Shown piece by piece: positions 484 through 17,452 of a DNA stretch of 64,000 nt (its first letter is position 1; each line of letters begins with the position of its first letter). Below the pieces are notes generated by a model. That model had not been told where the DNA came from and made no database searches. It was given only the letters and a program-made list of their open reading frames with translations. The translations under genes and the position numbers were made by a program. This DNA comes from Actinomadura rifamycini DSM 43936 (GTDB lineage: Bacteria; Actinomycetota; Actinomycetes; Streptosporangiales; Streptosporangiaceae), in assembly GCF_000425065.1 (NCBI RefSeq), contig NZ_AULB01000003.1:1-64000 (forward strand), in the 5' to 3' direction.

Positions 484-2562
484 GTGGCTGAGCTGGCTAT
501 TGCGAATTCGTTCATGCCGCAGTACGCCAAGCTCGAGCCCAAGGTGCGCAAGGGCGTTGACGCGGCGCTCGCGAAGTTCGCGGAGCACACGCATGCGGGC
601 CTGCACCTGGAAAAACTGCGGAACGCGCGGGACCCCCGTATTCGGACGATCCGGATCGACCAGTACTGGCGCGGGGTCGTGCTCGCGCCCGATCAGGGCG
701 ACGTGTACTGCCTGATCAGCGTGCTCGGGCACGACGACGCGATCGAGTACGCCAAAAGCCGGAGGTTCTCGGTGAACCGGCGGCTCGGCGTCCTGGAGGT
801 CAGAGACGAGGGTGCCCTCGAGGAGATGTCGCCCGCGCTGGAGAAGGCGGCCGAGGGGACCGAGTACCGGCTGTTCGAGCACGTCTTCGACAAGGACCTC
901 ATGCGGCTCGGGATCGACGCGGAACTGATCCCGCTGGTCCGGCTGCTGACGAACGAGGCGCACCTGCAGGCGCTGGAGAAGCTGCTGCCGGAGCCCCAGT
1001 ACATCGCGCTGCTGGCGCTGGTGCAGGGCATGAACCCGCAGGAGGCGTGGGCCGAGGTCGCCCAGTGCCTGCCGGTGGAGGAGTCGCCCGAGGAGGTCGA
1101 CCCCGACGACCTCGTGGCGGCGATGCGGCGGACGCCCGGGCAGGTCGTGTTCGTCAACGGGCCCGAGGAGCTCCGGGACGTGCTCGCCCATCCGTTCGCG
1201 ACGTGGCGTGTCTTCCTGCACCCGGTCCAGCGGAAGGTCGCTTTCAAGCGGTACAACGGGCCCGCGCAGGTGACGGGCGGGGCGGGTACGGGCAAGACGG
1301 TCACCGCGCTCCATCGGGCGAAGTTCCTGGCGGAGCGCGACGGCGCACGGGTGCTGCTGACGACCTTCACGAAGAACCTGGCGGAGGCGCTGGGGGATCA
1401 ACTCGCCTTGCTGGTGGACGATCCCGAGGTGCGCGGGCGGGTGCACGTCCGGAACGTCGACGCGTTGGCGTACGCGATCGTGGGGCGGCATCACCGGCCG
1501 GCCATCGCCGCGCAGAACCTCCTGGACCGGCTGTGGGAGGAGGCCGCGGAGGGGACGGCCCACTCCCCCGTGTTCCTGCAGCGGGAGTGGGAGCAGGTCG
1601 TCCTCGCGCAGGGGCTGGAGAGCGAGGAGGAGTACCTCGCGTGCACCAGGTCGGGGCGCGGGGTGCCGCTCGGGAAGGCGCAGCGGTCGGTGGTGTGGCG
1701 GGCGCTCCGGCATGTGATGGACGGGCTCGCGGCGGCGGGGAAGTCGACGTTCCCGCAGCTCGCGAACGAGGCCGCGGAGCTGGCCGGGGCGCCGGAGTAC
1801 GACCACGTGATCATCGACGAGGCGCAGGACATCCATCCGACGCAGTGGCGGCTGCTGCGGCGGCTGGTGGCGCAGGGGCCGGACGACCTCTTCATCGTGG
1901 GCGACCCGCACCAGCGGATCTACGACAGCCACGTGTCGCTGGCGAGCCTCGGCATCAACGTGCGGGGACGCAGCACGAAGTTGAAGCTGAACTATCGGAC
2001 GACGCAGGAAATCTTGCAGTGGTCCGTGCCGCTGCTGGGGTTCGCGCCCGCCCAGGGGCTGGACGACTCCGCGGACACGCTGGACGGGTACCGGTCGCCG
2101 ATGCACGGACGCCGCCCGCTCGTCCGGGAGTACGGCAGCGCGGACGCGGAGATGGACGGGCTCGTCGCGCAGGTCCGGACGTGGATCGACGACGGAGTGG
2201 AGCCGGGATCGATCGGGGTCGCGGCGCGGTACGTGTTCCTGGTGAAGAGGGTCGTTGGACGGCTCAAGGCGGCGGGCGTGCCCGCGTGCCAGGTGCCCGG
2301 CTCGTCCGACGGCGTGCAGGTCGGAACGATGCACCGGATGAAGGGGCTGGAGTTCCGCTGTATCGCGGTCGTGGGGGCGGACGAGAGTTCTCTGCCGTCC
2401 GGCCAAGCCCTCACGAGCGAGGACGAGGACCCGAAGGCGCACGCGCAGGACGTCCAGAAGGAGCGGTGCCTGCTGTTCGTGGCGTGCACGCGCGCGCGGG
2501 ACCACCTGTACGTGTCGTACACGGACAGGCCCAGCCCTTTCTTGCCTAATTCAACTCGGTGA
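484..2562 (+). CDS. UvrD/Rep-type SF1A DNA helicase
   Basis: ATP-dependent 3'-5' DNA helicase of the UvrD/Rep/PcrA group, about 692 residues. Visible motifs: Walker A GGAGTGKT (about residue 265), Walker B VIIDEAQD (about 445), motif III/IV GDPHQRIYD and LNYRT (about 480-500), motif V TMHRMKGLEF (about 613) and motif VI VACTRARDHLYVS (about 666). The first 200 residues are a non-helicase region I cannot assign. I place the start at GTG 484 because GGGAGGGG lies at 468-475; longer starts at 289 and 442 are open but lack this site. The gene overlaps the 3' end of the opposite kinase gene by 17 bp. A DNA-repair or plasmid/phage-response role is inferred only. Confidence 0.88.
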   Translation: MAELAIANSFMPQYAKLEPKVRKGVDAALAKFAEHTHAGLHLEKLRNARDPRIRTIRIDQYWRGVVLAPDQGDVYCLISVLGHDDAIEYAKSRRFSVNRRLGVLEVRDEGALEEMSPALEKAAEGTEYRLFEHVFDKDLMRLGIDAELIPLVRLLTNEAHLQALEKLLPEPQYIALLALVQGMNPQEAWAEVAQCLPVEESPEEVDPDDLVAAMRRTPGQVVFVNGPEELRDVLAHPFATWRVFLHPVQRKVAFKRYNGPAQVTGGAGTGKTVTALHRAKFLAERDGARVLLTTFTKNLAEALGDQLALLVDDPEVRGRVHVRNVDALAYAIVGRHHRPAIAAQNLLDRLWEEAAEGTAHSPVFLQREWEQVVLAQGLESEEEYLACTRSGRGVPLGKAQRSVVWRALRHVMDGLAAAGKSTFPQLANEAAELAGAPEYDHVIIDEAQDIHPTQWRLLRRLVAQGPDDLFIVGDPHQRIYDSHVSLASLGINVRGRSTKLKLNYRTTQEILQWSVPLLGFAPAQGLDDSADTLDGYRSPMHGRRPLVREYGSADAEMDGLVAQVRTWIDDGVEPGSIGVAARYVFLVKRVVGRLKAAGVPACQVPGSSDGVQVGTMHRMKGLEFRCIAVVGADESSLPSGQALTSEDEDPKAHAQDVQKERCLLFVACTRARDHLYVSYTDRPSPFLPNSTR

Positions 2563-4057
2563 GAAGCGCCCTCAAGCCGGGGATCTGGGGGTGGGTTTCG
2601 CCGTTGCGGCCCACCAGCTCGGTCAGGAGCCCGGAGAGCTCCTCGCGGGCTTCGGCGGTTCGGCCCGCCGCGAGCTTCGCGCGGGCGATCTCCTCGCGGA
2701 GCCGCGGGACGAGCGCGTCGTCCGGACCGCGGCCGGGCGCGACGTCGCCGAGCAGCGCCTCCAGAGCGCGAAGCGCGGATCCGGTCGCCCCCAGCTGGGC
2801 GTGGCAGACCGCCTCCCGCTCGCGGCAGTGCAGGACCTGCGGGCCGTCCGGCCCCTCCCATTCGGCCAGGTCGGCGGCCGCCGAACGGTAGGCGTGGACC
2901 GCGCGCCGGTAGTCGCCGCCGTCGAACAGGACGTCGGCGAGCTCCGCCTGCAGGCGCTGCCACTCCGGATCGTCGTCGCCGAGGGCGAGCCGGGCGGGTT
3001 CGGCGAGGTCGGAGAGCAGTTCCGCGGCCTGCGTGTAGCGGCCCTCGCCCGCGAGGACGGCGGCCTCCTCGCGCGCCCGGACGACCTCGCCGCGGGTGGG
3101 GAGTTCGACGGGTTCCTCGACGCGGCGCGCGGCCGCGGCGACCTTGATGCGGCTGACGGCGTGCGCGTACAGGTGCGCGGGCGGGGACGTGACGATGCCC
3201 GGAAGCGGTTCGAGTGCGGAGACGAACTGCAGAAGCCGCTGGTAGACGTCCTCGGCGTCCCTGGGGCGGTCGCCGGGCTGCTTCTTGAGGAGTTCGAGGA
3301 CGAGAGCGTCGAGACCGGAGGGGATGTCGGGGCGCAGCCGGCGGGGCGGGGCCGGGTCCTCGGTTTCGTGGCGGCGCATCACCTCGTACGGGGTCGCTCC
3401 CTCGAACACTCGGCGTCCGGTGAGCATCTCGTAGAGGACGCACCCGAGGGAGTACAGGTCGCTCTGCGGGCTCGGCGCCCCGTACACCTGCTCCATGGCC
3501 GTGTAGCCGGGCGTGTGGGGCGCGCCGAGGCCGGTGGTGGTGCGGCGCACGTCGTCGGGGCCGAGGGCGACCGCCGCGCCGAAGTCGAGGACCTTCACCG
3601 AGCCGTCCGGGCACAGCATGAGGTTGCCGGGCTTGAGGTCGCGGTGGACGAGCGGGCGCCGGTGGGCGACGCTCAGCACCGCGCAGACCTGCGCGGCGAT
3701 CAGGGCCGCCCACGGGACCGGCAGCCGCTCGCGGGAGTCGACGACGTCGGCGAGGGTGAGGCCCTCGACGTACTGCATCACCAGGTAGAAGCAGTGGCCG
3801 CGGTCGGTGTCGCGGTGCCGCCCGAAGTCGTACACGGTCGGGACGCCGGGGTGCTCGAACCACGCGGTGCTGCGCGCCTCCTGCTCGAACCGCCCGGCGA
3901 GGGCCTCGTCGCCGACGACGGTGAACTTGACCGCGAGCCTGCGGTCGAGGAACCGGTCGTAGGCGCGCCAGACCTCGCCCATGCCGCCGCGCCCGATCGC
4001 CTGGTCCAGCTCGTACCGTCCGCGTTCTCCGAGGAGATCGCCGCGCCGCACTCGCAC
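2546..4057 (-). CDS. Cytosolic Ser/Thr protein kinase with TPR-like C-terminus
   Basis: Hanks-type kinase, 503 residues. Residues 15-270 form the kinase domain: glycine loop GRGGMGEVW (22-30), ATP lysine in LAVKF (K44), catalytic loop HRDLKPGN (138-145) and DFG (158-160). The APE motif is degenerate (TAMEQ, 186-190). A threonine-rich activation segment TTTG lies between them. Residues 300-503 are alpha-helical with TPR-like pairs, for example around EGRYTQAAELL. There is no transmembrane segment and no PASTA or other sensor domain, so the protein should be soluble. Its substrates are unknown. It is transcribed toward the helicase gene and their stop-codon regions overlap. AfsK/Pkn-like regulation is plausible but unproven. 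Confidence 0.9.
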   Translation of the reverse strand: MRVRRGDLLGERGRYELDQAIGRGGMGEVWRAYDRFLDRRLAVKFTVVGDEALAGRFEQEARSTAWFEHPGVPTVYDFGRHRDTDRGHCFYLVMQYVEGLTLADVVDSRERLPVPWAALIAAQVCAVLSVAHRRPLVHRDLKPGNLMLCPDGSVKVLDFGAAVALGPDDVRRTTTGLGAPHTPGYTAMEQVYGAPSPQSDLYSLGCVLYEMLTGRRVFEGATPYEVMRRHETEDPAPPRRLRPDIPSGLDALVLELLKKQPGDRPRDAEDVYQRLLQFVSALEPLPGIVTSPPAHLYAHAVSRIKVAAAARRVEEPVELPTRGEVVRAREEAAVLAGEGRYTQAAELLSDLAEPARLALGDDDPEWQRLQAELADVLFDGGDYRRAVHAYRSAAADLAEWEGPDGPQVLHCREREAVCHAQLGATGSALRALEALLGDVAPGRGPDDALVPRLREEIARAKLAAGRTAEAREELSGLLTELVGRNGETHPQIPGLRALLTELN

Positions 4058-4366: not shown

Positions 4367-5221
4367 GTGAACTACGGGGACGAGCTACGGCGAGACATCG
4401 CGGCGGAAGGGGTCACTCCGCTCATCGGAGTGTTCGACATGTTCTCGGCCTCGGTGGCCGCGCAGCACTACGACGGCCTGTTCGTGTCCGGCTTCGGGTT
4501 CGCCGCCTCGTTCTACGGCCTGCCCGACATCGGCTTCATCGCCTGGCCGGACATGGTGGCGTTCACGCAGCGGCTGCGGCTGGCCTTCCCGCACCGGCAC
4601 CTGCTGGTCGACATCGACGACGGCTATGTCGACAACGACGTCGCCTGCCACGTCATCGAGCAACTGGAGCTGATCGGCGCCTCCGGGGTGGTCCTGGAGG
4701 ACCAGAAACGGCCGCGCCGCTGCGGCCACGTCGACGGCAAGCGACTCCTCCCCCTGCCGGAGTACCTGGACAAGCTGGCGACGGTGCTGCAGACCCGGCG
4801 CAACCTGGTGGTGGTGGCGCGGACCGACGCCACCGGGGAGGAGATGCTGCGGCGCGCCGAGGCCCTTGCCGCCACCGCCGCCGACGTCGTCCTGGTCGAC
4901 GGGATCGGCAGCATCGAGGGCATCCGCCGGATTCGCGAGGTCATCGGCGACAAGCCGCTGCTGTTCAACCAGATCGCCGGCGGCAAGTCGCCGCGCCTGT
5001 CGCTGCCGGAACTGGCCGCGCTCGGGGTGAACGTCGCCGTCTACAGCACCCCCTGCCTCTTCGCCGCGCACACCGCCATGGAACAGGCGCTCCTGCGCCT
5101 CAAAGGGGAGGACGGCCGGCTCCCCGAGCCGACGTCCGGCGGCGTCGGCGTCAGCGAATCCCTCGCGCTGCTGCAACGCAACATCAGCCGACACCGCTCC
5201 GCCGCACAGCGCCCGTCATGA
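4367..5221 (+). CDS. Isocitrate lyase/PEP mutase superfamily enzyme
   Basis: A 284-residue TIM-barrel protein of the PEP mutase/isocitrate lyase superfamily. VDIDDGY (81-87) supplies the metal-binding aspartates and LEDQ (110-113) the conserved glutamate. RRCGH (117-121) matches the K(K/R)CGH loop with the catalytic cysteine of the lyases. The mutase-type loop of phosphonate biosynthesis is absent, so C-C bond cleavage of a 2-hydroxy- or 2-methyl-dicarboxylate is more likely than P-C bond formation. The substrate cannot be named. The GTG start at 4367 follows GAAGGAG at 4354-4360. The gene stands alone and runs toward the methylase gene. Confidence 0.85.
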   Translation: MNYGDELRRDIAAEGVTPLIGVFDMFSASVAAQHYDGLFVSGFGFAASFYGLPDIGFIAWPDMVAFTQRLRLAFPHRHLLVDIDDGYVDNDVACHVIEQLELIGASGVVLEDQKRPRRCGHVDGKRLLPLPEYLDKLATVLQTRRNLVVVARTDATGEEMLRRAEALAATAADVVLVDGIGSIEGIRRIREVIGDKPLLFNQIAGGKSPRLSLPELAALGVNVAVYSTPCLFAAHTAMEQALLRLKGEDGRLPEPTSGGVGVSESLALLQRNISRHRSAAQRPS

Positions 5222-5272
5222 ACGGGCCTCGCTCGATCCGGCTGGACGCCGCGGGCGCGGCGGGGGCGGCCG

Positions 5273-7258
5273 TCAGGGGCGGGGGCGGAGGGTGCCGGCG
5301 CCGAGCCCCTCTAGGCCGAGGGTGAGGACCCGGTCGCCGGCCTCCTGGGCGGCGCGGAGGGCCGCTTCCAGGTCGGTGAGGCGGCGGAACGCCTCGCCGT
5401 AGCCGGCCTGCTCGTCGAGGGTGAGGCGGGGCAGCCGGGCGCGGCGGACGTCGAACCGGGCGGACGAGGTGGAGCTGCGCAGGCTCGCGCCGCGGGCGCC
5501 CAGCCGCAGCCAGCCCGCGACGAAGTCGGGGTCGCTGCGGGCGGGGTCGACGCGGACGATCGTCAGTCCGGGCCCGAGGACCGGGCCGTCCTCGGCGGCG
5601 ACGCGCGCGACGGGGTGGCGGGCGATCTGGGAGACGACGATGTCGCGGGCCCGGATCCGGACGTGGTCCGCGTCGGGGGCCGCGGCCCCGGTCGGGCCCC
5701 GGCCGCGGGCGGCGTCGTCCAGCGTGAGGACGGGCACGGTGCCCTCGTCCATCCGGATGCGGGGCGACACCCGCAGGAGCTGCAGGACGCCGGCCTTCGC
5801 CAGCTCGCCGATCGTCGTCATCGCGGGCTCGTCGCCGCCCCGCGCCTGTCTCAGCAGGTCCAGCGCGGTGACGGCCCGGGGCAGCGCGGCGGCGGCGCTC
5901 TCGAGGCGCTCGCGTTCGCGGGTGAAGGCGCCCCCGGCGGACGGCGCGGTGCGCTGCGGCAGGTGCCGCGCGGGGTTGAGGTCGACCTCGTCGTCGAGCA
6001 GGTCGATGATGCGGACGACGGTCGCGGCGCCGCGCTGCGGACGGCCGTCGAGGTAGCGGCGCCACGCGTCCACGGCGGCCTCGTGGTACGCGCCGGGCTC
6101 GGCGGACACGTCCGCCATCAGGACGTCGTCGGCGGGCTGGTCGCCCGGGGCGGGGCGGCGCAGCACCCAGACCGAGACCGCGACGGCCATGTTCGGCACG
6201 GCGCCCGCGGGGAGGCCGACGACGGCGCGCAGCGCGCCGCGGCGCAGCAGCTCGGCGCGGATGCGGCGGCCCGAGCGGCGGGCGGCCACGGCGGGCGGCA
6301 CCAGCATCACGACGAGACCGCCCGGCGCGGCGTGCGCGAGCCCGTGCTGCAGCCAGGCGAGCTCCGACTCCATGCGGGGCGGCAGCCCGTACTCCCACCG
6401 GGGGTCGCCGGTCAGCTCCTCGTATCCCCAGTTGCGGTCGTTGAACGGGGGGTTCGTGACGACGAGGTCGGCGGCGCGTCCGGCGAACGCGTCGTCGCGC
6501 AGGGAGTCGCCCGGACGGACCTCGGCCGGGGCCCCGCGCAGTGCGAGCTGTACCGCGGTCATGCGCGCGGTCGTCTCGTCTATCTCCTGCCCGAGGAGCT
6601 CTTGCACGTTCTTGTAGACGTCCTGGGCGGTGGTCAGGAACGCACCCGTGCCGCAGGCGGGGTCGAGGACGGTGCGAGGGGTTTCGGTCGCGAAGTCGAG
6701 CATCAGCCGGACGACCGGTTCGGGCGTCATGTACACGCGGCGGCTGTGGTGCTCCAGGTAGCGCGTGCGTAGGAACTCGAAGGCGTCCGCGGTGCCGAGT
6801 TCGTCGGCGAGCCCGGCGAGCGCGCGCGCCAGGGGGACGTGGGCGGCGGCGTCGAAGGAGGCGGGGAGCCGGTCGGTGTGCGCGCGGACGGCCGCGGCGA
6901 GCGCCTCGCCGGCGCGGTCGTCCGGGAAGGCGGACAGGTCGTTCCGGAGGGACGGGTCCGCGTGCAGGGAGAGCAGGAAGGCCCCGGCGAACGTCATGAC
7001 GTCGGACAGTTCGACGTCGGCGGCGGCGGCCTGCCGGAGGGTCTGCCAGACGCGCTCGCGCAGCGGCGGGTCGGCCAGTTTGCCCTGGTCGCGCAGCCAG
7101 CCCTCGATCTGGCCGAGGGAGAACGTCGGGCTGGTGGCGGTGCCGCCGACCGGCTGCGGGAAGTCGTCGTGCCGGCGCCGCCAGTTGCTCACCGCCGCGC
7201 GCCCCACACCCGCCAATCGGGCGATGTCGGCAGCGGTCACGGTCGCATCGTTCGACAC
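5273..7258 (-). CDS. HTH-containing N6-adenine DNA methyltransferase
   Basis: Class I SAM-dependent DNA methylase of the HsdM/N6_Mtase family, 661 residues. An N-terminal helix-turn-helix (about 8-55, core IARLAGVGRAAVSNW) precedes the catalytic domain with DPACGTG (199-205, SAM binding) and NPPF (269-272, adenine N6 methylation). Residues 500-650 resemble half of a type I specificity subunit (IRARDIVVSQIA, then a helical spacer near the end), so recognition may be built into the same chain. No HsdR gene is adjacent, but the divergent genes to the right encode a helicase-nuclease and a second nuclease. The GTG start at 7258 is the only good start before the HTH. Confidence 0.88.
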   Translation of the reverse strand: MSNDATVTAADIARLAGVGRAAVSNWRRRHDDFPQPVGGTATSPTFSLGQIEGWLRDQGKLADPPLRERVWQTLRQAAAADVELSDVMTFAGAFLLSLHADPSLRNDLSAFPDDRAGEALAAAVRAHTDRLPASFDAAAHVPLARALAGLADELGTADAFEFLRTRYLEHHSRRVYMTPEPVVRLMLDFATETPRTVLDPACGTGAFLTTAQDVYKNVQELLGQEIDETTARMTAVQLALRGAPAEVRPGDSLRDDAFAGRAADLVVTNPPFNDRNWGYEELTGDPRWEYGLPPRMESELAWLQHGLAHAAPGGLVVMLVPPAVAARRSGRRIRAELLRRGALRAVVGLPAGAVPNMAVAVSVWVLRRPAPGDQPADDVLMADVSAEPGAYHEAAVDAWRRYLDGRPQRGAATVVRIIDLLDDEVDLNPARHLPQRTAPSAGGAFTRERERLESAAAALPRAVTALDLLRQARGGDEPAMTTIGELAKAGVLQLLRVSPRIRMDEGTVPVLTLDDAARGRGPTGAAAPDADHVRIRARDIVVSQIARHPVARVAAEDGPVLGPGLTIVRVDPARSDPDFVAGWLRLGARGASLRSSTSSARFDVRRARLPRLTLDEQAGYGEAFRRLTDLEAALRAAQEAGDRVLTLGLEGLGAGTLRPRP

Positions 7259-7511
7259 ACCAGCACTCCCTCCAGCCGACGTTCAGGCGGCGTTCAGTGA
7301 TCACACCTTAGCGGTACCGGCCGGTCGGGCCGGTTGACCTGGTTCACGGTATCGCGGATCCGCGTCGATGAAGGTGACTGCTTGGGCGACGATTCGTCGG
7401 TTGATTGCGTTCACATTGCTATTGTGCTTTGCTGTGAACATCAGACGCCTCGCTGGACGAGCGCGGCGCTGGGCGCGACACCGAGGTGCCGCCGAGAACC
7501 ACGGAGAGAGC
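7259..7511. promoter_or_regulatory. Divergent promoter region with inverted repeat
   Basis: This 253-bp region separates the methylase gene from the DUF4352 gene. The part around 7395-7440 is AT-richer than its surroundings and contains GTTCACA at 7409-7415 and its reverse complement TGTGAAC at 7433-7439, 17 bp apart. That is the layout of a dimeric regulator site. The methylase HTH is an obvious candidate to bind here, by inference only. No clear -35/-10 pair stands out. Confidence 0.4.
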
Positions 7512-8273
7512 ATGAATCCCGGCCACGGAATCCCCGCACCAGGTCCGCAGCCCGCGGGCCCGCACGGTCCGCAGCACCTGCCGCCGCACCCGCCCCTTCC
7601 GCCGCACGGGCACCCGGCGGTCCCCCCGCCCCGGCGGCGCGGCAAGGGCTGCCTCTACGCGGCCGTCGGCGGCGTCGCGGCCCTGTTCCTGATGGTGGCG
7701 TGCGGGGCGATCGTCTCGACCGCGTCCGACCCGGCGGCCACGTCGTCCGGCACGGACGCCGGGTCCGCCGGGACGCGCGGCGAGGAGGCCGCCGCGGGCG
7801 GCGCGGGCACCGGGAAGGGCGCGGACTCGGAGAAGAGCGCGGAGCCCAGGAAGGGCGGGGCGAAGGTCGCCGACGGGATCGGGCGCGAGTACCGGGACGG
7901 CAAGTTCGCCTTCACCGTCACCAAGGTGAAGAAAGGCGTCGCGCGGGTCGGGAACCAGTACGCGGGCTCGGAGGCGCAGGGGCAGTACGTCCTCGTCCAC
8001 ATCACCGTCGAGAACATCGGCGACGAGGCCCGCATGTTCGACGGGACGAACCAGACGCTCATCGACACGAAGGGGCGCGAGTTCGAGGCCGACACCGAGG
8101 CGGCGATCTGGAGCAACCGGGACACGCGGTCGTTCCTGGAGCAGATCAACCCCGGGAACTCGGTGAAGGGCGTCGTCATCTTCGACGTCCCGAAGAACGT
8201 GAAGCTCAAGGCCATCGAACTCCACGACTCGATGTTCTCCGGCGGCGTCACCGTCCCCCTGGGCGGACGCTGA
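7512..8273 (+). CDS. Membrane-anchored DUF4352-type protein
   Basis: 253 residues from ATG 7512, which follows GGAGAG at about 7503-7508. A proline/histidine-rich N-terminus (1-45) leads to a single membrane helix (about 48-68). An Ala/Gly/Ser/Lys-rich linker follows, then a C-terminal beta-sandwich (about 130-253) of the DUF4352 type (YVLVHITVENIGDEARMF). Such Ig-like domains are extracytoplasmic and often sit in phage- or stress-linked loci. The function is unknown. It is the first gene of a rightward run with the ASCH-GTPase and the large helicase-nuclease. An upstream in-frame ATG at 7368 is open but lacks a ribosome binding site. Confidence 0.75.
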   Translation: MNPGHGIPAPGPQPAGPHGPQHLPPHPPLPPHGHPAVPPPRRRGKGCLYAAVGGVAALFLMVACGAIVSTASDPAATSSGTDAGSAGTRGEEAAAGGAGTGKGADSEKSAEPRKGGAKVADGIGREYRDGKFAFTVTKVKKGVARVGNQYAGSEAQGQYVLVHITVENIGDEARMFDGTNQTLIDTKGREFEADTEAAIWSNRDTRSFLEQINPGNSVKGVVIFDVPKNVKLKAIELHDSMFSGGVTVPLGGR

Positions 8274-8317
8274 CGCGCCCCGCGGCCGCCCGAACCGTCG
8301 TCATCACGGGAGTGGAA

Positions 8318-10705
8318 TTGAGCGAGATCTCCTGGGTTCTGACCGTCCCCCAGCCCGCCGCGTGGGCCATCGCCCACGGCCACCAGGACGTCTACAACCG
8401 CACCTATCCGACCGACCGGCGCGGCTGGTTCGCGATCTGCGCGGGCCGCGCCGCGGACTCCGGGCTCCTCGCGGCCACCGCCCGGCTCACCGGCCGCACC
8501 CCGGCGCAGGTCGCGCGGGAGGCGGCCGAGCGGGACGCGATCGTGGCCGTCGCCCGGCTCGCGGACGTGTGCAACGAGCCGTCCTGCGCCTGCGGGCCGT
8601 GGGCGCGGGACCGCTACGTCCACTGGCGGTTCGCGGACGCGGTCCTCCTCCCCGAGCCGGTGCCCGCGCCCCGCGAGGTCGGGATCTGGAAGCCGCCGAA
8701 GGACATCGCCGACGCCGTGGCGCTGCAGTGGCGCGCGGCGGCCGGCGAACCCGCCGACCACACCGCGGTCCGGGACGGCCTGCTGCCGCTCCCGGCCGCC
8801 GGCTACCGCCGCGTCCTGCTCCTCGGGACCACCGGCGCCGGCAAGACGACCGTCGTCCGGCAGCTGCTCGGCACCGACCCGGAGACCGAGCGGTTCCCGT
8901 CCACCTCGACCGCCAAGACGACCGTCGCCGACACCGAGCTGGTCCTGACGCCGGACGGCCCGTACCGCGCGGCCGTCACGTTCGCGGGCCGCGACGAGGT
9001 CGCCGCCCACCTGCGCGACAACGTCTGGGAGGCGGCCCGCGCGGTGCTGGAGGAGCGCCCGGAAAGGATCGTCCAGGACCGGCTGCTCGACCACGTCGGC
9101 CAGCGGTTCCGGTTCAGCTACCTGCTCGGGCGCGCGGCCGCGCCCGGCGCCGCGGACCCGTCCGACGAGCCCGACGACCTCGACGACGACGCGGCGGCCC
9201 TGGGCCCGCCGGACGCCGCGCCCGACCCGGGCACCACCGAGCTCGTCCGGACCTCGGTCCGGGAGCTGCGGCGGTTCGTCCGCGCGGAGCTCGCGCGGCT
9301 CGGGCCCGGCGCGCCGGCGGAGGCCGTCGAGGACGAACTGGAGACCCGCGTGCGCCGCTCCCCCGTGGCCGACCGGATCGTCGCGGCGCTCCTCGCCGCC
9401 GTCCACGACCGGTTCGCGCTGCTCGGCGAGGGCGAGCTGCGCCGCGCGGACGGCTGGCCGGTGTCGTGGACGTGGCGCAGCGACGACCGCGCCGAGTTCC
9501 TGCGGGTGATCACCCGGTTCTCCAGCAACCAGGCGGCGTTCTTCGGGCACCTGCTGACGCCGCTGGTCGACGGCGTCCGCGTGGCGGGCCCGTTCCGCCC
9601 CCGGTGGGCCGGGCGCGCTCCCCGGCTCGTCCTCATCGACGGCGAGGGCCTCGGCCACGCGCCGGGCTCCGTCGCCGAGGTCTCCACCCGGCTGCGGCGG
9701 CGGCTCGACGAAGTCGACGCGATCGTCCTCGTCGACAACGCGCAGCAGCCGATGCAGGCCGCGCCCGTCGCCGTCATGCGCACCGCCGCCGCGACCGGCA
9801 ACGGCGGCAAGCTGTTCTTCGTCTTCACCCACTTCGACCTGGTCAGGGGCGACAACCTGCGGTCGTTCCCGGACCGCGAGCGGCACGTCCTCGGCTCGGC
9901 GGAGAACGTCCTCGGCGACGTCCGGGAGGAGCTCGGCATCGCCGAGCGGGTGCTGCGCCGCCGCCTGGACGACGCGCGCTTCTTCGTCGGCGGCATCGAC
10001 CGGCTGCTCGCCCCCGACCTGGTCGACCCGGCCCGCCCGAAGGCGGCCCGCCGCACCATCGGGCAGCTCAACGCCCTCCTCGACGCCCTCACCGCGGACG
10101 CCGTCCCCCCGGAGACCGGCCCGTCCCGCCCGGTCTACGACCGCGCGCAGGTCACCGCCGCGGTCGTCGAGGCCGCGCGGGCCTTCCACGTCCGCTGGCG
10201 CGGCGCCCTCGGCGACGCCCCCGCCCCGGACGTCCCGCGCCGGCACTGGTCCACGGTCAAGGCCCTCACCCGGCGTCTCGCGGAGGGCCACACCGACGAG
10301 TTCAAGGACCTGCGCCCCGCCGCGAGCCTGCGCACCGCCCTCGAGTACGCGCTGTACCGGGCCCTGCAGCGCCCGGTCGGCTGGACCGGCGCCGAACCCG
10401 ACGCGGACGACCGGGAGGTCATCGTGGGCGAGATCGCCGGGGCCCTCGCCAAACGCCTCATCGCCCCCGTCGACCGCCTCGTCACCACCGGCCCGCGCCC
10501 CGCCTGGGCGCGCGCCCACGAGGAGCACGGCAGGGGCTCGACCGTCCGCCGCGCCCGCATCGTCATCGACGAGATCTACGAACGCGCCGTCCCGACCCCG
10601 CCCCCCGGCGCCCCCGGCGGCGCCCCGTACGCCCCGCCGCTCGCCCGCACCGTCCACACGGCCTTCCAGGAGGCGACCCGGGGCCTCGCCCACATCACCG
10701 GCTGA
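8318..10705 (+). CDS. ASCH-like domain fused to a large P-loop GTPase
   Basis: About 795 residues. Residues 1-60 (LTVPQPAAWAIAHGHQDV, then NRTYPTDRRGW and AICAG) resemble the ASCH fold, a nucleic-acid or modified-nucleoside binding domain. At about 167-178 lies a P-loop (LLLGTTGAGKTT). DGEG near 441 and FTHFD near 504 could serve as G3 and G4, so the core looks like a dynamin/septin-like GTPase, though ATP use is not excluded. Helical segments and an acidic DDLDDDAAAL stretch (about 285) separate the motifs. I prefer the TTG at 8318 because GGGAG ends at 8312; a GTG at 8312 gives two more residues. It lies 160 bp upstream of the helicase-nuclease gene, on the same strand. No close family is recognised. 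Confidence 0.7.
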   Translation: MSEISWVLTVPQPAAWAIAHGHQDVYNRTYPTDRRGWFAICAGRAADSGLLAATARLTGRTPAQVAREAAERDAIVAVARLADVCNEPSCACGPWARDRYVHWRFADAVLLPEPVPAPREVGIWKPPKDIADAVALQWRAAAGEPADHTAVRDGLLPLPAAGYRRVLLLGTTGAGKTTVVRQLLGTDPETERFPSTSTAKTTVADTELVLTPDGPYRAAVTFAGRDEVAAHLRDNVWEAARAVLEERPERIVQDRLLDHVGQRFRFSYLLGRAAAPGAADPSDEPDDLDDDAAALGPPDAAPDPGTTELVRTSVRELRRFVRAELARLGPGAPAEAVEDELETRVRRSPVADRIVAALLAAVHDRFALLGEGELRRADGWPVSWTWRSDDRAEFLRVITRFSSNQAAFFGHLLTPLVDGVRVAGPFRPRWAGRAPRLVLIDGEGLGHAPGSVAEVSTRLRRRLDEVDAIVLVDNAQQPMQAAPVAVMRTAAATGNGGKLFFVFTHFDLVRGDNLRSFPDRERHVLGSAENVLGDVREELGIAERVLRRRLDDARFFVGGIDRLLAPDLVDPARPKAARRTIGQLNALLDALTADAVPPETGPSRPVYDRAQVTAAVVEAARAFHVRWRGALGDAPAPDVPRRHWSTVKALTRRLAEGHTDEFKDLRPAASLRTALEYALYRALQRPVGWTGAEPDADDREVIVGEIAGALAKRLIAPVDRLVTTGPRPAWARAHEEHGRGSTVRRARIVIDEIYERAVPTPPPGAPGGAPYAPPLARTVHTAFQEATRGLAHITG

Positions 10706-10865
10706 ACGGCGGGACCGACCGTCCCCGGCGGGCCGGGCGGCAGGTGGGAGGCTTGCGGGGACAACCGCGAAGTGTCGCCGGACGTCCCACACAGACCGCA
10801 TGCGAAGATCGCGCCCCCCGCGGCGGAGGCGCGAGTGCAGACGTTGAAGGGATGCGAGGGCGTAC

Positions 10866-13800
10866 GTGACCGGTGATGCCATGACGCGGGAGCGGATCGG
10901 GCACCTGTACGACTATCTGGGGGCGCTCGCGCAGGAGGTGTACGCCAAACCCGTCCGGCATCTGGGCGACCACGAGGTGCAGGTGGCGCCGGGCGACCTG
11001 CCGGACCACCGGGCGGTGCGGCTGGTGTCCCCGGCCGGTGGCGGCACCGGGGAGGCGTGGCTGCGGGTCGGCAAGACGCCGAAGCCGAAACCGCCCGCGT
11101 ACCCGCCGGAGATCGCCGGGCTGCTGCGCGGGGTGGGCCGCGGCGACCCCGGCGTCCCGCCCGAGCTGCCGGACGACCTCGCGGCGCGGGCCGGTGAAGA
11201 GGCCGCCGGCAACGCCCGCGCGGTCCTGGCCGCCTGGCGCGCGGACGTGTGGGAGCCGTGGGCTGAGGCGGCCCGCGCCGCGCTCGCCGCCCGGGACCTG
11301 TACGAGACGCTGTTCCGGCTGCGGCAGCGGATGCGCGCCGACGAGGCCACGCACGAACTGGTGTGGGGCCACGGGATCCTGGGCTGGCACCACGGCGGGC
11401 ACCGGATCTGCCATCCGCTGCTGGTCACGCGGACGCGGGTGGCGTTCGACGCGGCGTCCGGGGAGATCTCGATCACGGCCGACGGGCCGACCGCCCTGGA
11501 GCTGGACTGCCTGCAGGGCCTCGGCGTCCCGGGGCTGGACCGGCTCGCCCCGATCGCCGAGGAGCTGCGCGCGGAGCCCGTCGACCCGTGGGCGCCCGAC
11601 GAGGCGCGCCGGCTGTACCGGCGGCTCGTCGCCCCCCTCGGGCTGGACGCCCGCATCGACGACGGGGTCGCGGCCCCGGAGATCGGCCCGACCCCGGTCA
11701 TGGCCGGGACGTGGCGGCTGTTCGTCCGGAAACGTCCGGTGATGTTCCCGCGCTTCTTCGAGCGGCTGAAGCAGACGGTCGCCGCGGGCGGGCGGCTGCC
11801 CGCGCCGATGGTGGCGCTGGCGACCGGCGACGACGCGCCGGCGGACGCCCCCGCGGACGACTGGACGCCGGTCGCCGAACGGCTGCTGCTGCCGCTCGCC
11901 GCGAACGACGAGCAGGAGCAGATCGTCCGCAAGCTCGCGTCGCACAGCGGCGTCACCGTCCAGGGCCCGCCCGGCACCGGCAAGAGCCACACGATCGCGA
12001 ACCTGGTGTCGCACCTGGTCGCGCACGGCAAGCGGGTGCTGGTCACCGCGCACAAGGACCAGGCGCTCGCCGTCCTGCGCGACAAGATCCCCGACGAGCT
12101 GCGGGACCTGTCGCTGGCGGTGCTCGGGTCGTCGTCGGCCGACCTGACCGCGCTGCAGCAGTCCGTCCAGGCGATCACGGGGACGGCCGACGGGATCGAC
12201 GAGGAGCGGGAGCGGCGCGCCACGGAGGCGCTGCGAGAGCGGCTCGACGCGGTGACGGCCGAGGTGCTGGCGCTGCGCAAGCGGCTGCGGACGTCCCTGG
12301 AGCGCGAGCAGGAGACGCTCGAGCTCGACGGCTTCCCCCGGCCCGCCGCCGAGGTCGCCGACCGGCTCGCCCGGCGGCAGGGCGAGCTCGACCTGATACC
12401 CGACCCGGTGCCCGCCGGGTCGCGGCCGCCGCTGGACCCCGGCGAGCTCGCCGAGCTGTACGCGCTGGCCGGGGAGATCGGCGAGCGGGACGCCCGGAAC
12501 GCGGTGCTCGACCTGCCGCCCGCCGACCGGCTCCCGCCGGGCGGGCGGCTCGCGGAACGCTGGGCGGAGCTGCGGCGGCTCGCGGACGTCCTCGCCGGGT
12601 ACCGCGACTACGTCGCCGACCCGGCCGTCCTCGACGCCGCCGGGGAGCCCGCGCTCGCGCGGCTCGCCGAACGCTGCGGGCAGGCCGCCCGCGCCCTCGC
12701 GGACCTGCAGGAACCGTGGTTGCAGCGGCTGCGCGACCAGGTTGTGCAGTCCCCGCGGTGGCGGGAGCTCTGGGAGGGGCACGCGCGGCGGCTCGGCGCG
12801 GACGCCGCCGAATGCGCGCGGCTGCGGGCGGCGACGGCGGGCGCGGCGGTCGAGCTGCCGCCGGGCCCGCCCGGCGAGACGCTCGCGCTGCTGGAGCAGG
12901 CGCGGGCCCGGTTCGCGCAGGGCAAGAAGGTGTCCGGGCTGACGCAGCGGTCGCTGGCGCAGTTCCTCAAGGGCACCGTGCTGGACGGCGAGACGCCGCG
13001 CACCGCCGCGGACGTCGAACGCGTCATCGCGTTCGTGGAGCTGCGGCGCCGCCGGGAGAGCGCGGTGCGGCTCTGGCGGGACGAGCTCGTCGCCGCGCTC
13101 GGCGCGCCCGAGCCCGCCGCCGGCGCCGCCGTCGAGATCTGGATCGACGCGCGGGTCCAGCAGATCACCGCCGCGCTGGCCTGGGAGTTCGGCGAGTGGC
13201 CGCGGCTGCGCGCCGAACTGTGCGCGATCGTCGCGCCCGACGCCGTCCCGCACCGGCCGTCCCCCGACGACCTGCACCGGCTCGCCTCGGTGCTCGGCGG
13301 GCTGACGGCGCGGGCCCGGCAGCGGGCCGTCCAGGCCGAGCTGGACGCCCTCGCCGCCCACGTGGCGGACGGGCGCGGCCGCCAGGGGGCGAGCCCGCTG
13401 TGGACCGACCTCGCGAACGCCGTCAGGCAGCGCGACCGGGGCATCTGGGACGCCGCGCTGGCGGGCGCGGCCCGGCTCGCGGCGCTCCGGCCGCGGGTCG
13501 CGCGGCTGACCGAGCTGCACGACCGGCTGGCGGCCGCCGCTCCGCAGTGGGCGCGCCGCATCCGGGAGACCGGCGGGGACGCCGCCGCGTGCGGCGACCC
13601 GGCCCGGCTCGGCGAGCTGTGGGAGTGGCGGCGCGCCGAGACGTGGCTGCGCGCGATCATCGACGCGGACGATCTCGGCGCCGTCCAGCGGCGCCTCGAC
13701 GCGGCGCAGGAGGAGCAGCGGCGCGTCACGCTCGAGCTGACGCGCCGCTCGGCGTGGCTCGCCATGAAGGGCAACCTCGGCGCCGACCGGCGCCGCGCCC

Positions 13801-15590
13801 TGGTCGGCTGGCTGCAGACCCTCCGCAAGATCGGCAAGGGCACCGGGGCGAGCGCGGGCAAGTGGCGCGCGGAGGCCCGGCGGCTGATGCCGGAGGCGAT
13901 GGGCGCCGTCCCGGTGTGGATCATGCCGTACTACCGGGTGGCGGAGTCGTTCGACCCGGTGGTCGCCCCGCCGTTCGACGTCGTCGTCATCGACGAGAGC
14001 AGCCAGTGCGACGTGTTCGCGCTCGGGCTGCTCGGCCTCGGCCGCAAGGTGGTCGTGGTCGGCGACGACAAGCAGATCAGCCCGTCCGCCGTCGGGATCC
14101 GCCGCGACCGCGTGGACGAGCTGATCCGCACCCACCTGCCGACGCTGCCGAACTCGATGCTGCTCGACATGGAGTCGAGCCTGTACGACGCGGCGACCCG
14201 GCTGTTCCCCGGGGTCGTCCGGCTGCGGGAGCACTTCCGCTGCCTGCCGCGCATCATCGAGTTCTCCTCGCAGCACTACTACGGCGGGGAGATCCAGCCG
14301 CTGCGGGAGGAATCGGACGTCCGGCTGCCCGGGCCCGCCGTGCGGGCGGTGCACGTCCCGGACGGCGTCCGGCGGGACCTGCCGATCGGCGACGTCAACG
14401 AGGCCGAGGCGCACGCCCTCATCGACCGGGTCGTCCAGTGCTGCGCCGACCCCGCCTACGACGGCCGGACGATGGGCGTCATCTCGCTGCTGAGCAGCAG
14501 CAGGCAGGCCCACTACATCGACGAGCGGCTCATGGGCAAGCTCGGCCCGGAGGAGTACGAGCGCCGCGGGCTCCGCTGCGGCGACTCCTACAGCTTCCAG
14601 GGGGACGAACGGGACGTCGTGTTCGTCAGCGTCGTCGCCGACTCGGCCCGCGCGCCGTTCACGTCCCGCCGGTACGAGCAGCGCGTCAACGTCGCCGCGA
14701 GCCGCGCCCGGGACCAGATGTGGGTGTTCCACAGCGTCCGGCCGAACGACCTGCATCCCGACGATCAGCGGGCGGCGCTCGTCCGGTACGCGTCCGACGG
14801 GCCGCGGTCCGCGGATGCGGCCGCCGACCCGGAGTCGCGCTGCGAGTCCGACTTCGAGCGCCGCGTCCTGCGCATGCTGCTGGACCGCGGCTACCTGGTC
14901 ACCCCGCAGCATCCGGTGGGCAACCTGCGGATCGACCTCGTCGTCCGGGGCGGCGGCCGCAAGCTCGCCGTCGAATGCGACGGGGACAAGTTCCACGGCC
15001 CCGACCAGTGGGAGGACGACCTGCGCCGGCAGACCGTCCTGGAACGTCTCGGCTGGCGGTTCTGGCGGGTGCGCGGCAGCGTCTTCTACCGCGATCCCGA
15101 AGCCGCGATGTCGGAGCTGTGGCCGCTCCTCGACCGACTCGGCATCACCCCGGGCGGCGACCCGCCACCCGAACCGGCCGAGGTCTCGCCGACCGCGCCG
15201 CATGCCGGGCCGGACGCCGATCCCCGTCCGCCCGGGCTCTCGCTCTCGCCGGAACCGACCGGCACGCCGGGCACGGCTCCCGTGGACCCCGCCCCGGTCG
15301 TCCCGCCCGCCGCCGACCGCGCGCCCGACCGTCCGGGCGCCGTGGAGGCCCGGACGCTGGAGTTCCTGGAGCTCGCCGGTGCTTCCCGAGACGCTCCGGC
15401 GGACGGGCCCGCCGAGCCGGCGCGGGCCCCGGACGGTCCGCCGCGCGGCCGGCGGAGCACCGGGGAGCAGGTCCGGGCGTGGGCGCGGGCGAACGGGCGG
15501 CACGTCGGCTCCCGCGGCCGGATCGCCAAGGCGATCGTCGACGACTACAACTGGGAGCACCCGGACGCCCCCTATGATCCGGACCGGTGA
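10866..15590 (+). CDS. Giant SF1 (Upf1-like) helicase - DUF559/MTES nuclease - Lsr2-like tail
   Basis: 1574 residues. The SF1B (COG1112-type) helicase has Walker A GPPGTGKSH (about 366), Walker B VVVIDESSQ (about 1040), GDDKQISPS, FRCLPRIIEF, SFQGDERDVVF (about 1242) and NVAASRARDQM (about 1275). A 600-residue helical, arginine-rich insertion separates motif Ia from motif II. Residues 1325-1425 form a Vsr/DUF559-like PD-(D/E)XK nuclease: ESDFERRV, RIDLVV, VECDGDKFH and FWRVRGS. A Pro/Ala linker leads to residues about 1530-1572 (VRAWARANGRHVGSRGRI), which match the C-terminal AT-hook-like DNA-binding domain of Lsr2. The start is GTG 10866; ATG 10881 is possible. A foreign-DNA surveillance nuclease is inferred. 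Confidence 0.88.
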   Translation: MTGDAMTRERIGHLYDYLGALAQEVYAKPVRHLGDHEVQVAPGDLPDHRAVRLVSPAGGGTGEAWLRVGKTPKPKPPAYPPEIAGLLRGVGRGDPGVPPELPDDLAARAGEEAAGNARAVLAAWRADVWEPWAEAARAALAARDLYETLFRLRQRMRADEATHELVWGHGILGWHHGGHRICHPLLVTRTRVAFDAASGEISITADGPTALELDCLQGLGVPGLDRLAPIAEELRAEPVDPWAPDEARRLYRRLVAPLGLDARIDDGVAAPEIGPTPVMAGTWRLFVRKRPVMFPRFFERLKQTVAAGGRLPAPMVALATGDDAPADAPADDWTPVAERLLLPLAANDEQEQIVRKLASHSGVTVQGPPGTGKSHTIANLVSHLVAHGKRVLVTAHKDQALAVLRDKIPDELRDLSLAVLGSSSADLTALQQSVQAITGTADGIDEERERRATEALRERLDAVTAEVLALRKRLRTSLEREQETLELDGFPRPAAEVADRLARRQGELDLIPDPVPAGSRPPLDPGELAELYALAGEIGERDARNAVLDLPPADRLPPGGRLAERWAELRRLADVLAGYRDYVADPAVLDAAGEPALARLAERCGQAARALADLQEPWLQRLRDQVVQSPRWRELWEGHARRLGADAAECARLRAATAGAAVELPPGPPGETLALLEQARARFAQGKKVSGLTQRSLAQFLKGTVLDGETPRTAADVERVIAFVELRRRRESAVRLWRDELVAALGAPEPAAGAAVEIWIDARVQQITAALAWEFGEWPRLRAELCAIVAPDAVPHRPSPDDLHRLASVLGGLTARARQRAVQAELDALAAHVADGRGRQGASPLWTDLANAVRQRDRGIWDAALAGAARLAALRPRVARLTELHDRLAAAAPQWARRIRETGGDAAACGDPARLGELWEWRRAETWLRAIIDADDLGAVQRRLDAAQEEQRRVTLELTRRSAWLAMKGNLGADRRRALVGWLQTLRKIGKGTGASAGKWRAEARRLMPEAMGAVPVWIMPYYRVAESFDPVVAPPFDVVVIDESSQCDVFALGLLGLGRKVVVVGDDKQISPSAVGIRRDRVDELIRTHLPTLPNSMLLDMESSLYDAATRLFPGVVRLREHFRCLPRIIEFSSQHYYGGEIQPLREESDVRLPGPAVRAVHVPDGVRRDLPIGDVNEAEAHALIDRVVQCCADPAYDGRTMGVISLLSSSRQAHYIDERLMGKLGPEEYERRGLRCGDSYSFQGDERDVVFVSVVADSARAPFTSRRYEQRVNVAASRARDQMWVFHSVRPNDLHPDDQRAALVRYASDGPRSADAAADPESRCESDFERRVLRMLLDRGYLVTPQHPVGNLRIDLVVRGGGRKLAVECDGDKFHGPDQWEDDLRRQTVLERLGWRFWRVRGSVFYRDPEAAMSELWPLLDRLGITPGGDPPPEPAEVSPTAPHAGPDADPRPPGLSLSPEPTGTPGTAPVDPAPVVPPAADRAPDRPGAVEARTLEFLELAGASRDAPADGPAEPARAPDGPPRGRRSTGEQVRAWARANGRHVGSRGRIAKAIVDDYNWEHPDAPYDPDR

Positions 15591-15679
15591 GCAAGCCTCG
15601 CCGACTTTTCCGAATCGGTGGTTGATCGAGTTCACGCGTGCTCTAATGGTCGTGGTCATCCCCTAGCGCTGGAGCGGAC

Positions 15680-17452
15680 ATGCCCTTCGGAAACTGGACG
15701 CCGCACGAGGAGCTGAGCGGCGATCCCGGCGTCATCCGGCTCTCGGCGAGCCTGCTCGACCGCGACGACCGGCACTGCCGCGACTTCGCCGCGCTCAAGT
15801 CCCGCCCGCGGGTGTGGCCGCGCAGGCGGGGGGCGCGGCGGTACGCGCCGTGGGAGACGTTCCCGCTCGGGCTCGTGATGGACGCCCTGAACCTGACCGA
15901 GTTCGGGGACGTCCCCGCGGAGGACGCGATCGACAAGGCGCTCGGGCGGGCGCGGTCGGCGGTGCACCCGGGTGTCGCGGTGTGGGTGCGGCACGCGTTC
16001 GACGCGTACCTGCGGGCGGCCGAGTGGATCGCCGACGACCTCGAGGCCGAGGGCGTCGCGGTGCGTCCGGAGCCGCTGCCGCGGGTCGTCCAGGCGGAGT
16101 CGGCCGCGGAGCTGCGGGTGCTCACCGCGTGGGGACGCTGGTACGGGTCGGCCGACGGCGCCGTGCGGGAGTTCCGGCGGCTCCGGGTGGGGCGCCCCGG
16201 CGAGCGCGACGCGCCGTCGAACGACGCGCTCGCGTTCGTCGCGGCGGCGGGCCTGCGCGCGGAGAGCGACGTCTACCGGGACCTGCCGGTCGAGGTGCTC
16301 CCGGACGAGGTCGCACCGCAGCGCGTCCGGTTGGTCGAGGTCGTCCTCACGGGGGACGCGCCGCCGCGGGTGCTCGTGGACGCGCCGCCGGCCGAGGTCC
16401 GCCGCGTGTACCGGGAGCGCACCAGGCCGATCGTCACCGACATCGCGTTCGGCGTGGGCACCCGGCCGGGGTCCGACTGCGTCGACTGCAAGGTGCTGCC
16501 GACGTGCGGCGCGGTCCCGGACGTCCCGGGCCTGCTCGGCCTCGAGGGGCGCGGCACGCACCGCCGCACCTGGTCGGTGACGACCGGCCGCCAGTACCTG
16601 GTGTGCCCGGCGCAGGCGCACCTGCGGGAGCTGCACATCCCCGCCGCGCAGCGCTCGGACGGGACGGCGGCGCGGCGGGGACGCGCCGTGCACCGGTGGC
16701 TCGAGCTGGCGCACGGCCGCGCCGGCGCGCCGGCGTGCACCCGCGGCGACCTCCCCGACCCGGCGGGCGGGCTCGGCATCGCCGCCGGCGTCCTGACGCC
16801 CGAGGAGTACGCGGACGCCCACCCGTACCTGGCGGCGCACGTGGAGGTGTGCCCGCTGCGCGAACCGTCCGCGGACGTCCGGCCGGAACCCGCGGTGGCC
16901 GCGCACGACACCGAAGCGGACGTCGTGGTCATCGCCCACCCCGACCTGATCCGCACCACGGGCGGCACCGTCGTGTACCGGGAGCAGAAGACGACGCAGG
17001 GCGCTCCCCCGGCCGGGGACACCCGGACGGTCTTCACCCTCGTGCCCCAGCTGGCGCTGGCCGTCCTGCTGATGAAGCACGGCGTCCTCGGCGGCGACGG
17101 CGGCGGCATCGTCGAACTGGAGACGATGACGCCGTCGGGCGCGGAGGTGCTGCGGTTCGACGTGTGGGACCCCGACGTCCGGGAGGCCGCCCGCGAGGTG
17201 ATCACGTCGATGACCGCCCGCTGGCACGCCGACGAGTCCTTCCGTGCGCTGCCCGGCCCGTGGTGCGGCGGCTGCCCGGTCGCCGACTGGTGCCCCGACC
17301 GCGCGCCGAACGACCCCGGCGCCCCGATCGTGGTGGACGGCGTCCGCATCGACCCGCTCACCGGCGAGGTCCTCGGCGACGCCGTCACCGGCCGCGCCGC
17401 CGCGGTCGCCGACGGCGTCACCGACCCGACCGAGGAACCCCCGCCCTTCTGA
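15680..17452 (+). CDS. Cas4/AddB-like PD-(D/E)XK nuclease with Fe-S cysteines
   Basis: 590 residues. The C-terminal half is a RecB/Cas4-type nuclease: CPAQ (about 308), GRAVHRWLE (about 335, conserved His), HPDLI (about 419) and YREQKTT (about 433, the ExK of the active site). A final cluster WCGGCPVADWC (about 527-537), together with the first cysteine, suggests an AddB/Cas4-style iron-sulfur centre. The N-terminal half has a second cluster CVDCKVLPTC (about 267) and no recognised fold. The gene starts 90 bp after the helicase-nuclease on the same strand, so the two probably act together in DNA end processing or defence. The substrate is unknown. No adaptation genes or CRISPR repeats are present. 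Confidence 0.82.
   Translation: MPFGNWTPHEELSGDPGVIRLSASLLDRDDRHCRDFAALKSRPRVWPRRRGARRYAPWETFPLGLVMDALNLTEFGDVPAEDAIDKALGRARSAVHPGVAVWVRHAFDAYLRAAEWIADDLEAEGVAVRPEPLPRVVQAESAAELRVLTAWGRWYGSADGAVREFRRLRVGRPGERDAPSNDALAFVAAAGLRAESDVYRDLPVEVLPDEVAPQRVRLVEVVLTGDAPPRVLVDAPPAEVRRVYRERTRPIVTDIAFGVGTRPGSDCVDCKVLPTCGAVPDVPGLLGLEGRGTHRRTWSVTTGRQYLVCPAQAHLRELHIPAAQRSDGTAARRGRAVHRWLELAHGRAGAPACTRGDLPDPAGGLGIAAGVLTPEEYADAHPYLAAHVEVCPLREPSADVRPEPAVAAHDTEADVVVIAHPDLIRTTGGTVVYREQKTTQGAPPAGDTRTVFTLVPQLALAVLLMKHGVLGGDGGGIVELETMTPSGAEVLRFDVWDPDVREAAREVITSMTARWHADESFRALPGPWCGGCPVADWCPDRAPNDPGAPIVVDGVRIDPLTGEVLGDAVTGRAAAVADGVTDPTEEPPPF

What the first reader, a model, noticed from the sequence alone, without database searches (positions are those of the whole stretch)
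5273..17452. Possible undescribed defence island: methylase, DUF4352 membrane protein, ASCH-GTPase, helicase-nuclease-Lsr2, Cas4-like nuclease
Four rightward genes of unusual architecture face an HTH-linked N6-adenine methylase. The parts (self-marking methylase, GTPase switch, translocating helicase with nuclease, second end-processing nuclease, Ig-like membrane protein) are those found in anti-phage systems, and an IS remnant lies nearby. COG1112-type helicases occur in Mokosh, but there with kinase or PLD partners in cis, so this would be a different arrangement. The defence role is inferred.
Basis: partly seen in the sequence, partly recalled or inferred. Interest (0 to 1): 0.75.

Follow-up and report, generated by a model that had tools for sequence, protein, structure and literature searches.

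The report
Mosaic defence island, recycled DISARM/pPIWI-RE parts
This stretch of an actinobacterial chromosome looks like a patchwork of antivirus genes that are reshuffled from species to species, built on a DNA-methylase/kinase/helicase trio that in other bacteria belongs to the DISARM defence system, rather than a single new defence system that travels whole.

Summary
The genes are real, intact and defence-like, but they are not one system. Relatives of the window's genome (genus Actinomadura) break the proposed unit at gene borders: one species has lost the helicase-nuclease and keeps a 46-nt stub of its start; another carries a HelD/UvrD-like helicase where the GTPase and helicase-nuclease sit. 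Across three actinobacterial families this trio, or two of its genes, adjoins the DISARM core (DrmA-DrmB-DrmC), McrBC or pPIWI-RE. No DISARM core gene lies in the window. The 'Cas4-like' nuclease belongs to the pPIWI-RE nuclease family, yet the genome has no pPIWI-RE. The helicase-nuclease is a distant relative of Hhe/ProA with an AT-rich-DNA-binding Lsr2 tail in at least 4 of 10 orthologues. The GTPase is an undescribed, usually solitary family found in many phyla, whose N-terminal domain varies (ASCH-like here). Most likely: a composite defence island in which one methylase-kinase-UvrD module is combined with interchangeable effectors.

The parts
514..2562 (+). UvrD-family helicase (682 aa), part of the conserved methylase-kinase-UvrD module
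   Evidence: Pfam UvrD-helicase 9e-20, GajB/C3a187-like in PADLOC; relatives in 66 of 394 genomes of the class, next to a kinase or methylase relative in 21 of 29 loci read with only 1.5 kb flanks
2546..4057 (-). Ser/Thr protein kinase with C-terminal TPRs (503 aa from GTG; 478 aa from a later ATG), tail-to-tail with UvrD
   Evidence: Pkinase 7e-34; conserved beside the methylase in ~19 of 25 Actinomadura loci and in DISARM-linked loci
5273..7258 (-). N6-adenine DNA methylase (type I M-like), most likely the self-marking enzyme
   Evidence: N6_Mtase 1.9e-40, motifs DPACGTGAF and NPPF; PADLOC MTase_I PDLC03037 4e-104
7509..8273 (+). Membrane-anchored DUF4352 protein (Pro-rich, TM, then DUF4352)
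   Evidence: PF11611 1.4e-28; start by homology; recurrent to the right of the methylase in the genus
8318..10705 (+). ASCH-like domain fused to an undescribed GTPase with a large insert between G2 and G3
   Evidence: G motifs invariant or nearly so in 69 homologues; ASCH-like N-term by tblastn to annotated ASCH proteins; present in 8 of 65 congeners
10866..15590 (+). SF1 (Upf1-like) helicase + Vsr-like MTES_1575 nuclease + Lsr2 DNA-binding tail
   Evidence: Pfam, PDC-S37 5e-60, ProA 217 bits and Hhe 149 bits, both far below cut-off; tail ends ...GSRGRIAKAIVDDYNWEHP
15680..17452 (+). PD-(D/E)XK nuclease of the pPIWI-RE-associated family (PprPDDEXK)
   Evidence: PADLOC PDLC02423 3.7e-84; conserved catalytic and Cys residues H345, D422, E435, K437, C309, C529, C532, C538

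Best explanation
The locus (514-17452) is a composite anti-phage/anti-plasmid island. Its conserved part is a methylase-kinase-UvrD module, homologous to the module that in other Actinomycetes follows the DISARM core genes DrmA-DrmB-DrmC. Around it, effector cassettes are gained, lost and replaced; here these are an ASCH-GTPase, an Hhe-like helicase-nuclease with an Lsr2 tail, and a nuclease of the pPIWI-RE-associated family that occurs here without the Argonaute. Proposed mechanism (inferred): the methylase marks host DNA; the kinase and UvrD helicase act in sensing or licensing; the helicase-nuclease loads on unmarked DNA, in some species directed by its Lsr2 tail towards AT-rich foreign DNA, and cuts while translocating; the PD-(D/E)XK nuclease processes ends; the GTPase is an independent single-gene cassette. 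Shown: gene content, modularity, conservation of the trio and its partners. Inferred: the defence role and every biochemical step.
For: Module: >UvrD<KIN<MTase in ~19 of 25 Actinomadura loci with a close methylase; DrmA-DrmB-DrmC followed by MTase and/or KIN and UvrD in seven loci of other genera (G341, G289, G111, G196, G307, G324, G185), with DrmC at the fragment edge in G357, and McrB-McrC-UvrD facing MTase in five; pairwise distances of the three proteins correlate (Spearman 0.88-0.92 over 25 loci). Cassettes: gene-sized absence of the helicase-nuclease in G006 with a 46-nt 5' stub, and a HelD/UvrD-like gene in place of GTPase + helicase-nuclease in G057, at 83-92% flanking identity. PDDEXK tracks pPIWI-RE in 19 of 23 genomes (Fisher p 8.5e-10), but the window's genome (98% complete) has no pPIWI-RE. 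Helicase-nuclease: 7 of 10 orthologues lie within ~15 kb of this methylase or in the same gene order on broken contigs. Plasmid relatives of the GTPase lie beside BREX, type I R-M and MmeI genes.
Against: No phage or plasmid assay exists. Correlated distances also follow from shared species history. Orthologues of the helicase-nuclease exist without the methylase nearby (G013, G037; G031 47 kb away). The UvrD family is common in Actinomycetes and may have a housekeeping role. Neighbours of the GTPase across phyla are only modestly enriched in defence genes, judged without a matched control.
Confidence: 0.62

Rival explanations
1. A single undescribed defence system (DUF4352, ASCH-GTPase, helicase-nuclease-Lsr2, PD-(D/E)XK nuclease plus methylase) acting as one machine.
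For: Same order in the window and, on broken contigs, in G036; co-directional with 45-175 nt gaps; the four-species PDDEXK clade probably had the full set ancestrally (tree).
Against: G006 lacks the helicase-nuclease and G057 lacks both GTPase and helicase-nuclease although the flanks are 83-92% identical. The GTPase is solitary in most other taxa. PDDEXK follows pPIWI-RE, not the GTPase.
Confidence: 0.13
2. A decaying DISARM or pPIWI-RE locus: leftover accessory genes with no remaining defence function of their own.
For: DISARM-linked trio without DrmABC and PprPDDEXK without pPIWI; G006 shows loss.
Against: All seven genes are intact with catalytic motifs and strong coding bias; the trio without DrmABC nearby is kept in ~19 Actinomadura genomes at about 65-80% identity.
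Confidence: 0.15
3. The methylase, kinase and UvrD are a chromosomal regulatory/repair unit, and the right-hand genes are unrelated insertions.
For: UvrD relatives occur in 66 of 394 genomes of the class, often twice per genome; none of the cargo families lies beside the trio in some loci (L102, L106, L110).
Against: In other genera the trio is co-directional with DrmABC and often a GmrSD-type restriction gene, or adjoins McrBC.
Confidence: 0.1

Closest known systems
DISARM (DrmA, DrmB, DrmC with DrmMI/DrmMII; Ofir 2018; structure paper PMC9142583)
   Same: The window's methylase, kinase and UvrD are homologous (about 35-50% identity) to genes that directly follow DrmA-DrmB-DrmC in seven loci of other actinobacterial genera; self-marking methylase plus helicase and nuclease logic.
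   Different: No DrmA, DrmB or DrmC in the window; a kinase is not named as a DISARM component in the papers read.
pPIWI-RE system (Burroughs 2013, PMC3702460; PADLOC 'Ppr')
   Same: 15680-17452 belongs to the PprPDDEXK family; in congeners the order is PDDEXK-REase-DinG-pPIWI, in two genomes followed by UvrD-KIN-MTase.
   Different: pPIWI-RE is absent from the whole genome; REase and DinG are absent from 1-26.6 kb of the window.
Hhe (DUF4011-helicase-nuclease) and ProA
   Same: C-terminal helicase half plus Vsr-like nuclease, matched over ~400 aa.
   Different: 149 and 217 bits against cut-offs of 2000 and 1500; no DUF4011 found; an Lsr2 tail is added.
McrBC-type restriction
   Same: UvrD and methylase homologues lie next to McrB-McrC in five loci of other genera; the ASCH-GTPase also pairs a nucleic-acid-reader-like domain with a GTPase.
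   Different: The GTPase is not McrB-like AAA+ by Pfam, and no McrC was found in the locus.
Mokosh
   Same: MkoA/MkoC match the helicase (1.4e-32, 1.5e-30).
   Different: Weaker than PDC-S37 (5e-60); no kinase or PLD domain in cis.

Membership tests
DISARM | DrmA + DrmB core complex present at the locus | tested here: not met
   tblastn of DrmA/B/C from L253/L264 against the window: no match at 1e-15; elsewhere in the genome not tested
DISARM | DNA methylase and auxiliary genes of the kind found in DISARM operons | tested here: met
   MTase-KIN-UvrD homologues directly downstream of DrmABC in other genera
pPIWI-RE | pPIWI-RE protein with DinG helicase and REase | tested here: not met
   PF13032 absent from the whole genome; REase/DinG/pPIWI absent from 1-26.6 kb
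pPIWI-RE | associated PD-(D/E)XK nuclease (PADLOC PprPDDEXK) | tested here: met
   PDLC02423 3.7e-84; tree places it among nucleases linked to pPIWI-RE
Hhe / ProA | full-length model over the curated cut-off | tested here: not met
   149 of 2000 and 217 of 1500 bits
MADS | MAD2 methylase and MAD6 kinase over cut-off | tested here: not met
   29 of 720 and 128 of 460 bits
Type I restriction-modification | HsdM over cut-off, with HsdR and HsdS | tested here: not met
   HsdM 38.5 of 242.75 bits; no HsdR among the Pfam-scanned neighbours
Mokosh | helicase with kinase in cis (type I) or PLD partner | tested here: not met
   no Pkinase or PLD domain in 10866-15590

The most novel reading that the evidence does not exclude
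A methylase-kinase-UvrD trio is a general licensing module of actinobacterial immunity that serves several effector cores (DISARM DrmABC, McrBC, pPIWI-RE). In this window it licenses an effector combination not described before: an Hhe-like helicase-nuclease aimed at AT-rich foreign DNA by an Lsr2 tail, with a pPIWI-RE-type nuclease working without the Argonaute and a new family of reader-domain GTPases.
Probability: 0.3. Interest if true: 0.8.

Novelty: new variant of a known kind. Interest (0 to 1): 0.58.

Why it matters
If right, DISARM, pPIWI-RE and McrBC loci share a portable methylase-kinase-helicase module in Actinomycetes, which would explain how effectors are swapped while self-recognition is kept, and would make the role of the kinase testable. 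It also brings out an unnamed GTPase family present in many phyla and an Lsr2-tailed helicase-nuclease that could discriminate foreign DNA by base composition.

Tried and rejected
Genome searches with the whole helicase-nuclease and with its C-terminal 675 aa failed on the server. My first short query was translated out of frame by mistake; one search repeats it in frame and replaces it (10 genomes, not 7), so the helicase-nuclease rows of the Fisher tests use an outdated list and are not relied on. The window-frame ORF 4303-5325 that I first scanned was the wrong frame; the real ORF is 4367-5221. The sample of GTPase neighbours showed only modest R-M enrichment, so I do not claim that context proves the GTPase to be a defence gene. 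Promoter and terminator scans gave nothing above chance. Mokosh, MADS, BREX/Pgl and type I R-M were considered and not supported.
Full report
WHAT IS THERE. The window is the first 64 kb of contig C2 of an 8.4 Mb, 98%-complete genome. Its genus is most likely Actinomadura: one congener contig with the GTPase, G009:C44, has the exact length of an A. violacea contig. From left to right: UvrD helicase 514-2562(+), Ser/Thr kinase with TPRs 2546-4057(-), a PEP-mutase-like ORF 4367-5221(+), N6-methylase 5273-7258(-), DUF4352 7509-8273(+), ASCH-like domain + GTPase 8318-10705(+), helicase-nuclease-Lsr2 10866-15590(+), PD-(D/E)XK nuclease 15680-17452(+).

THE RIGHT-HAND GENES ARE CASSETTES. Against its nearest relatives the window aligns in blocks that end at gene borders. 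In G006, homology (86%) runs from 5239 to 10912 and resumes (90%) at 15619: the helicase-nuclease is missing but its first 46 nt remain, so it was deleted there. In G057, methylase, DUF4352 and PDDEXK are kept (83-92%), an RNase H-like gene is present between methylase and DUF4352, and a 2.9-kb stretch with a HelD/UvrD-like gene occupies the place of GTPase and helicase-nuclease. G036 has the window's set on broken contigs. The PDDEXK tree groups these four species, so the full set was probably present in their ancestor and has since been eroded (parsimony, inference).

EACH CASSETTE HAS ITS OWN HISTORY. The GTPase is found in 8 of 65 congeners, in five of them in this island and in three on its own. 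A genome-collection scan gave 74 loci across many phyla, one of them Actinomadura. The other 73 have no methylase or intact PDDEXK partner; one (Nocardia, L150) has a helicase-nuclease relative nearby, 38% identical; no neighbour is constant. In Actinoallomurus (L122) it lies near an RNase H-like gene, DUF4352 and a PDDEXK fragment. Its N-terminus varies: ASCH-like in Actinomadura and Actinoallomurus, none in Rhodococcus, another unassigned domain in proteobacteria. On plasmids it lies near BREX-1 plus AbiE, type I R-M, MmeI and other restriction-type genes. The PDDEXK nuclease belongs to PADLOC's pPIWI-RE set; in 65 genomes it co-occurs with pPIWI-RE (19 both, 4 nuclease only, 3 pPIWI only, 39 neither; p 8.5e-10), but the window's genome is one of the four with the nuclease alone. 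The helicase-nuclease is in 10 of 65 genomes. In seven it lies within ~15 kb of this methylase or in the same gene order on broken contigs; in G031 the methylase is 47 kb away; in G013 and G037 there is none nearby. The Lsr2 tail is present in four (window, G036, G009, G052), is lacking in the four others read for it (G051, G025, G010, G031), and was not read in G013 and G037.

THE CONSERVED PART. Among 25 Actinomadura genomes with a close methylase (65% identity or more), about 19 have >UvrD<KIN<MTase, whatever lies to the right. A search of 394 genomes of the class found UvrD relatives in 66. Of 20 of these regions read out to 8 kb on each side, seven show DrmA-DrmB-DrmC followed by methylase and/or kinase and UvrD (five of these, all in the window's family, then have a GmrSD-type gene; the two of family f19 do not); an eighth (G357) shows DrmC at the edge of the fragment; five show McrB-McrC-UvrD facing the methylase. 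PADLOC scores for the DISARM genes are unambiguous (DrmA 6e-285, DrmB 2e-74, DrmC 1e-108). In Actinomadura G012 and G054 the same trio directly follows PDDEXK-REase-DinG-pPIWI. Distances among the three proteins correlate across 25 loci (0.88-0.92), as expected for a co-inherited module, though shared species history contributes. I found no paper in the library that describes this trio with DISARM; that search is limited to open-licence text.

MECHANISM (inferred). The methylase, with intact motifs, most likely marks the host. Kinase and UvrD are the best candidates for sensing or licensing, because they persist when the effectors change. The helicase-nuclease has the parts to translocate and cut (Walker A GPPGTGKS, DESSQ, Vsr-like nuclease motif), and the Lsr2 tail carries an RGR motif of the kind known (my own knowledge of Lsr2) to bind AT-rich minor grooves, a plausible mark of foreign DNA in a 75% GC genome. 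The PDDEXK nuclease keeps its catalytic and cysteine residues. The GTPase is best regarded as a separate one-gene cassette.

VERDICT. New variant of a known kind: no single gene class is unheard of, but the shared methylase-kinase-UvrD module, the pPIWI-RE-type nuclease without the Argonaute, and the undescribed GTPase family deserve follow-up.

Noticed in passing
window 4367-5221(+): PEP-mutase/isocitrate-lyase-like gene (PF13714 1.7e-28) between kinase and methylase; among the loci held, its only relative is near a GTPase in a Chloroflexota contig (L139, 32%).
   Followed up: partly
window 18295-18585 and 18603-19439(+): Small protein and a hydrophobic, possibly secreted partner, no Pfam match; the same pair follows the PDDEXK nuclease in G057 (L081).
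   Followed up: partly
L050 10604-11110, L053 7830-8333, L054 8970-9476: Short (167-168 aa) ORF made only of the GTPase's middle insert, kept in three Actinomadura species in front of other cargo; either a remnant or a free-standing domain.
   Followed up: no
L250-L269: GmrSD-like gene (HEC-05-related) follows UvrD in many actinobacterial DISARM-type loci, so DrmABC-MTase-KIN-UvrD-GmrSD may be one extended DISARM variant.
   Followed up: partly
L083 16745-17632 and relatives: RNase H-like protein (PF00075 6e-6) recurs between methylase and DUF4352 in the genus but is missing from the window.
   Followed up: no
L132 11980-13449, L137, L141: A ~490-aa protein (SEC-C tail in L132) directly follows the GTPase in several loci from proteobacteria.
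   Followed up: no
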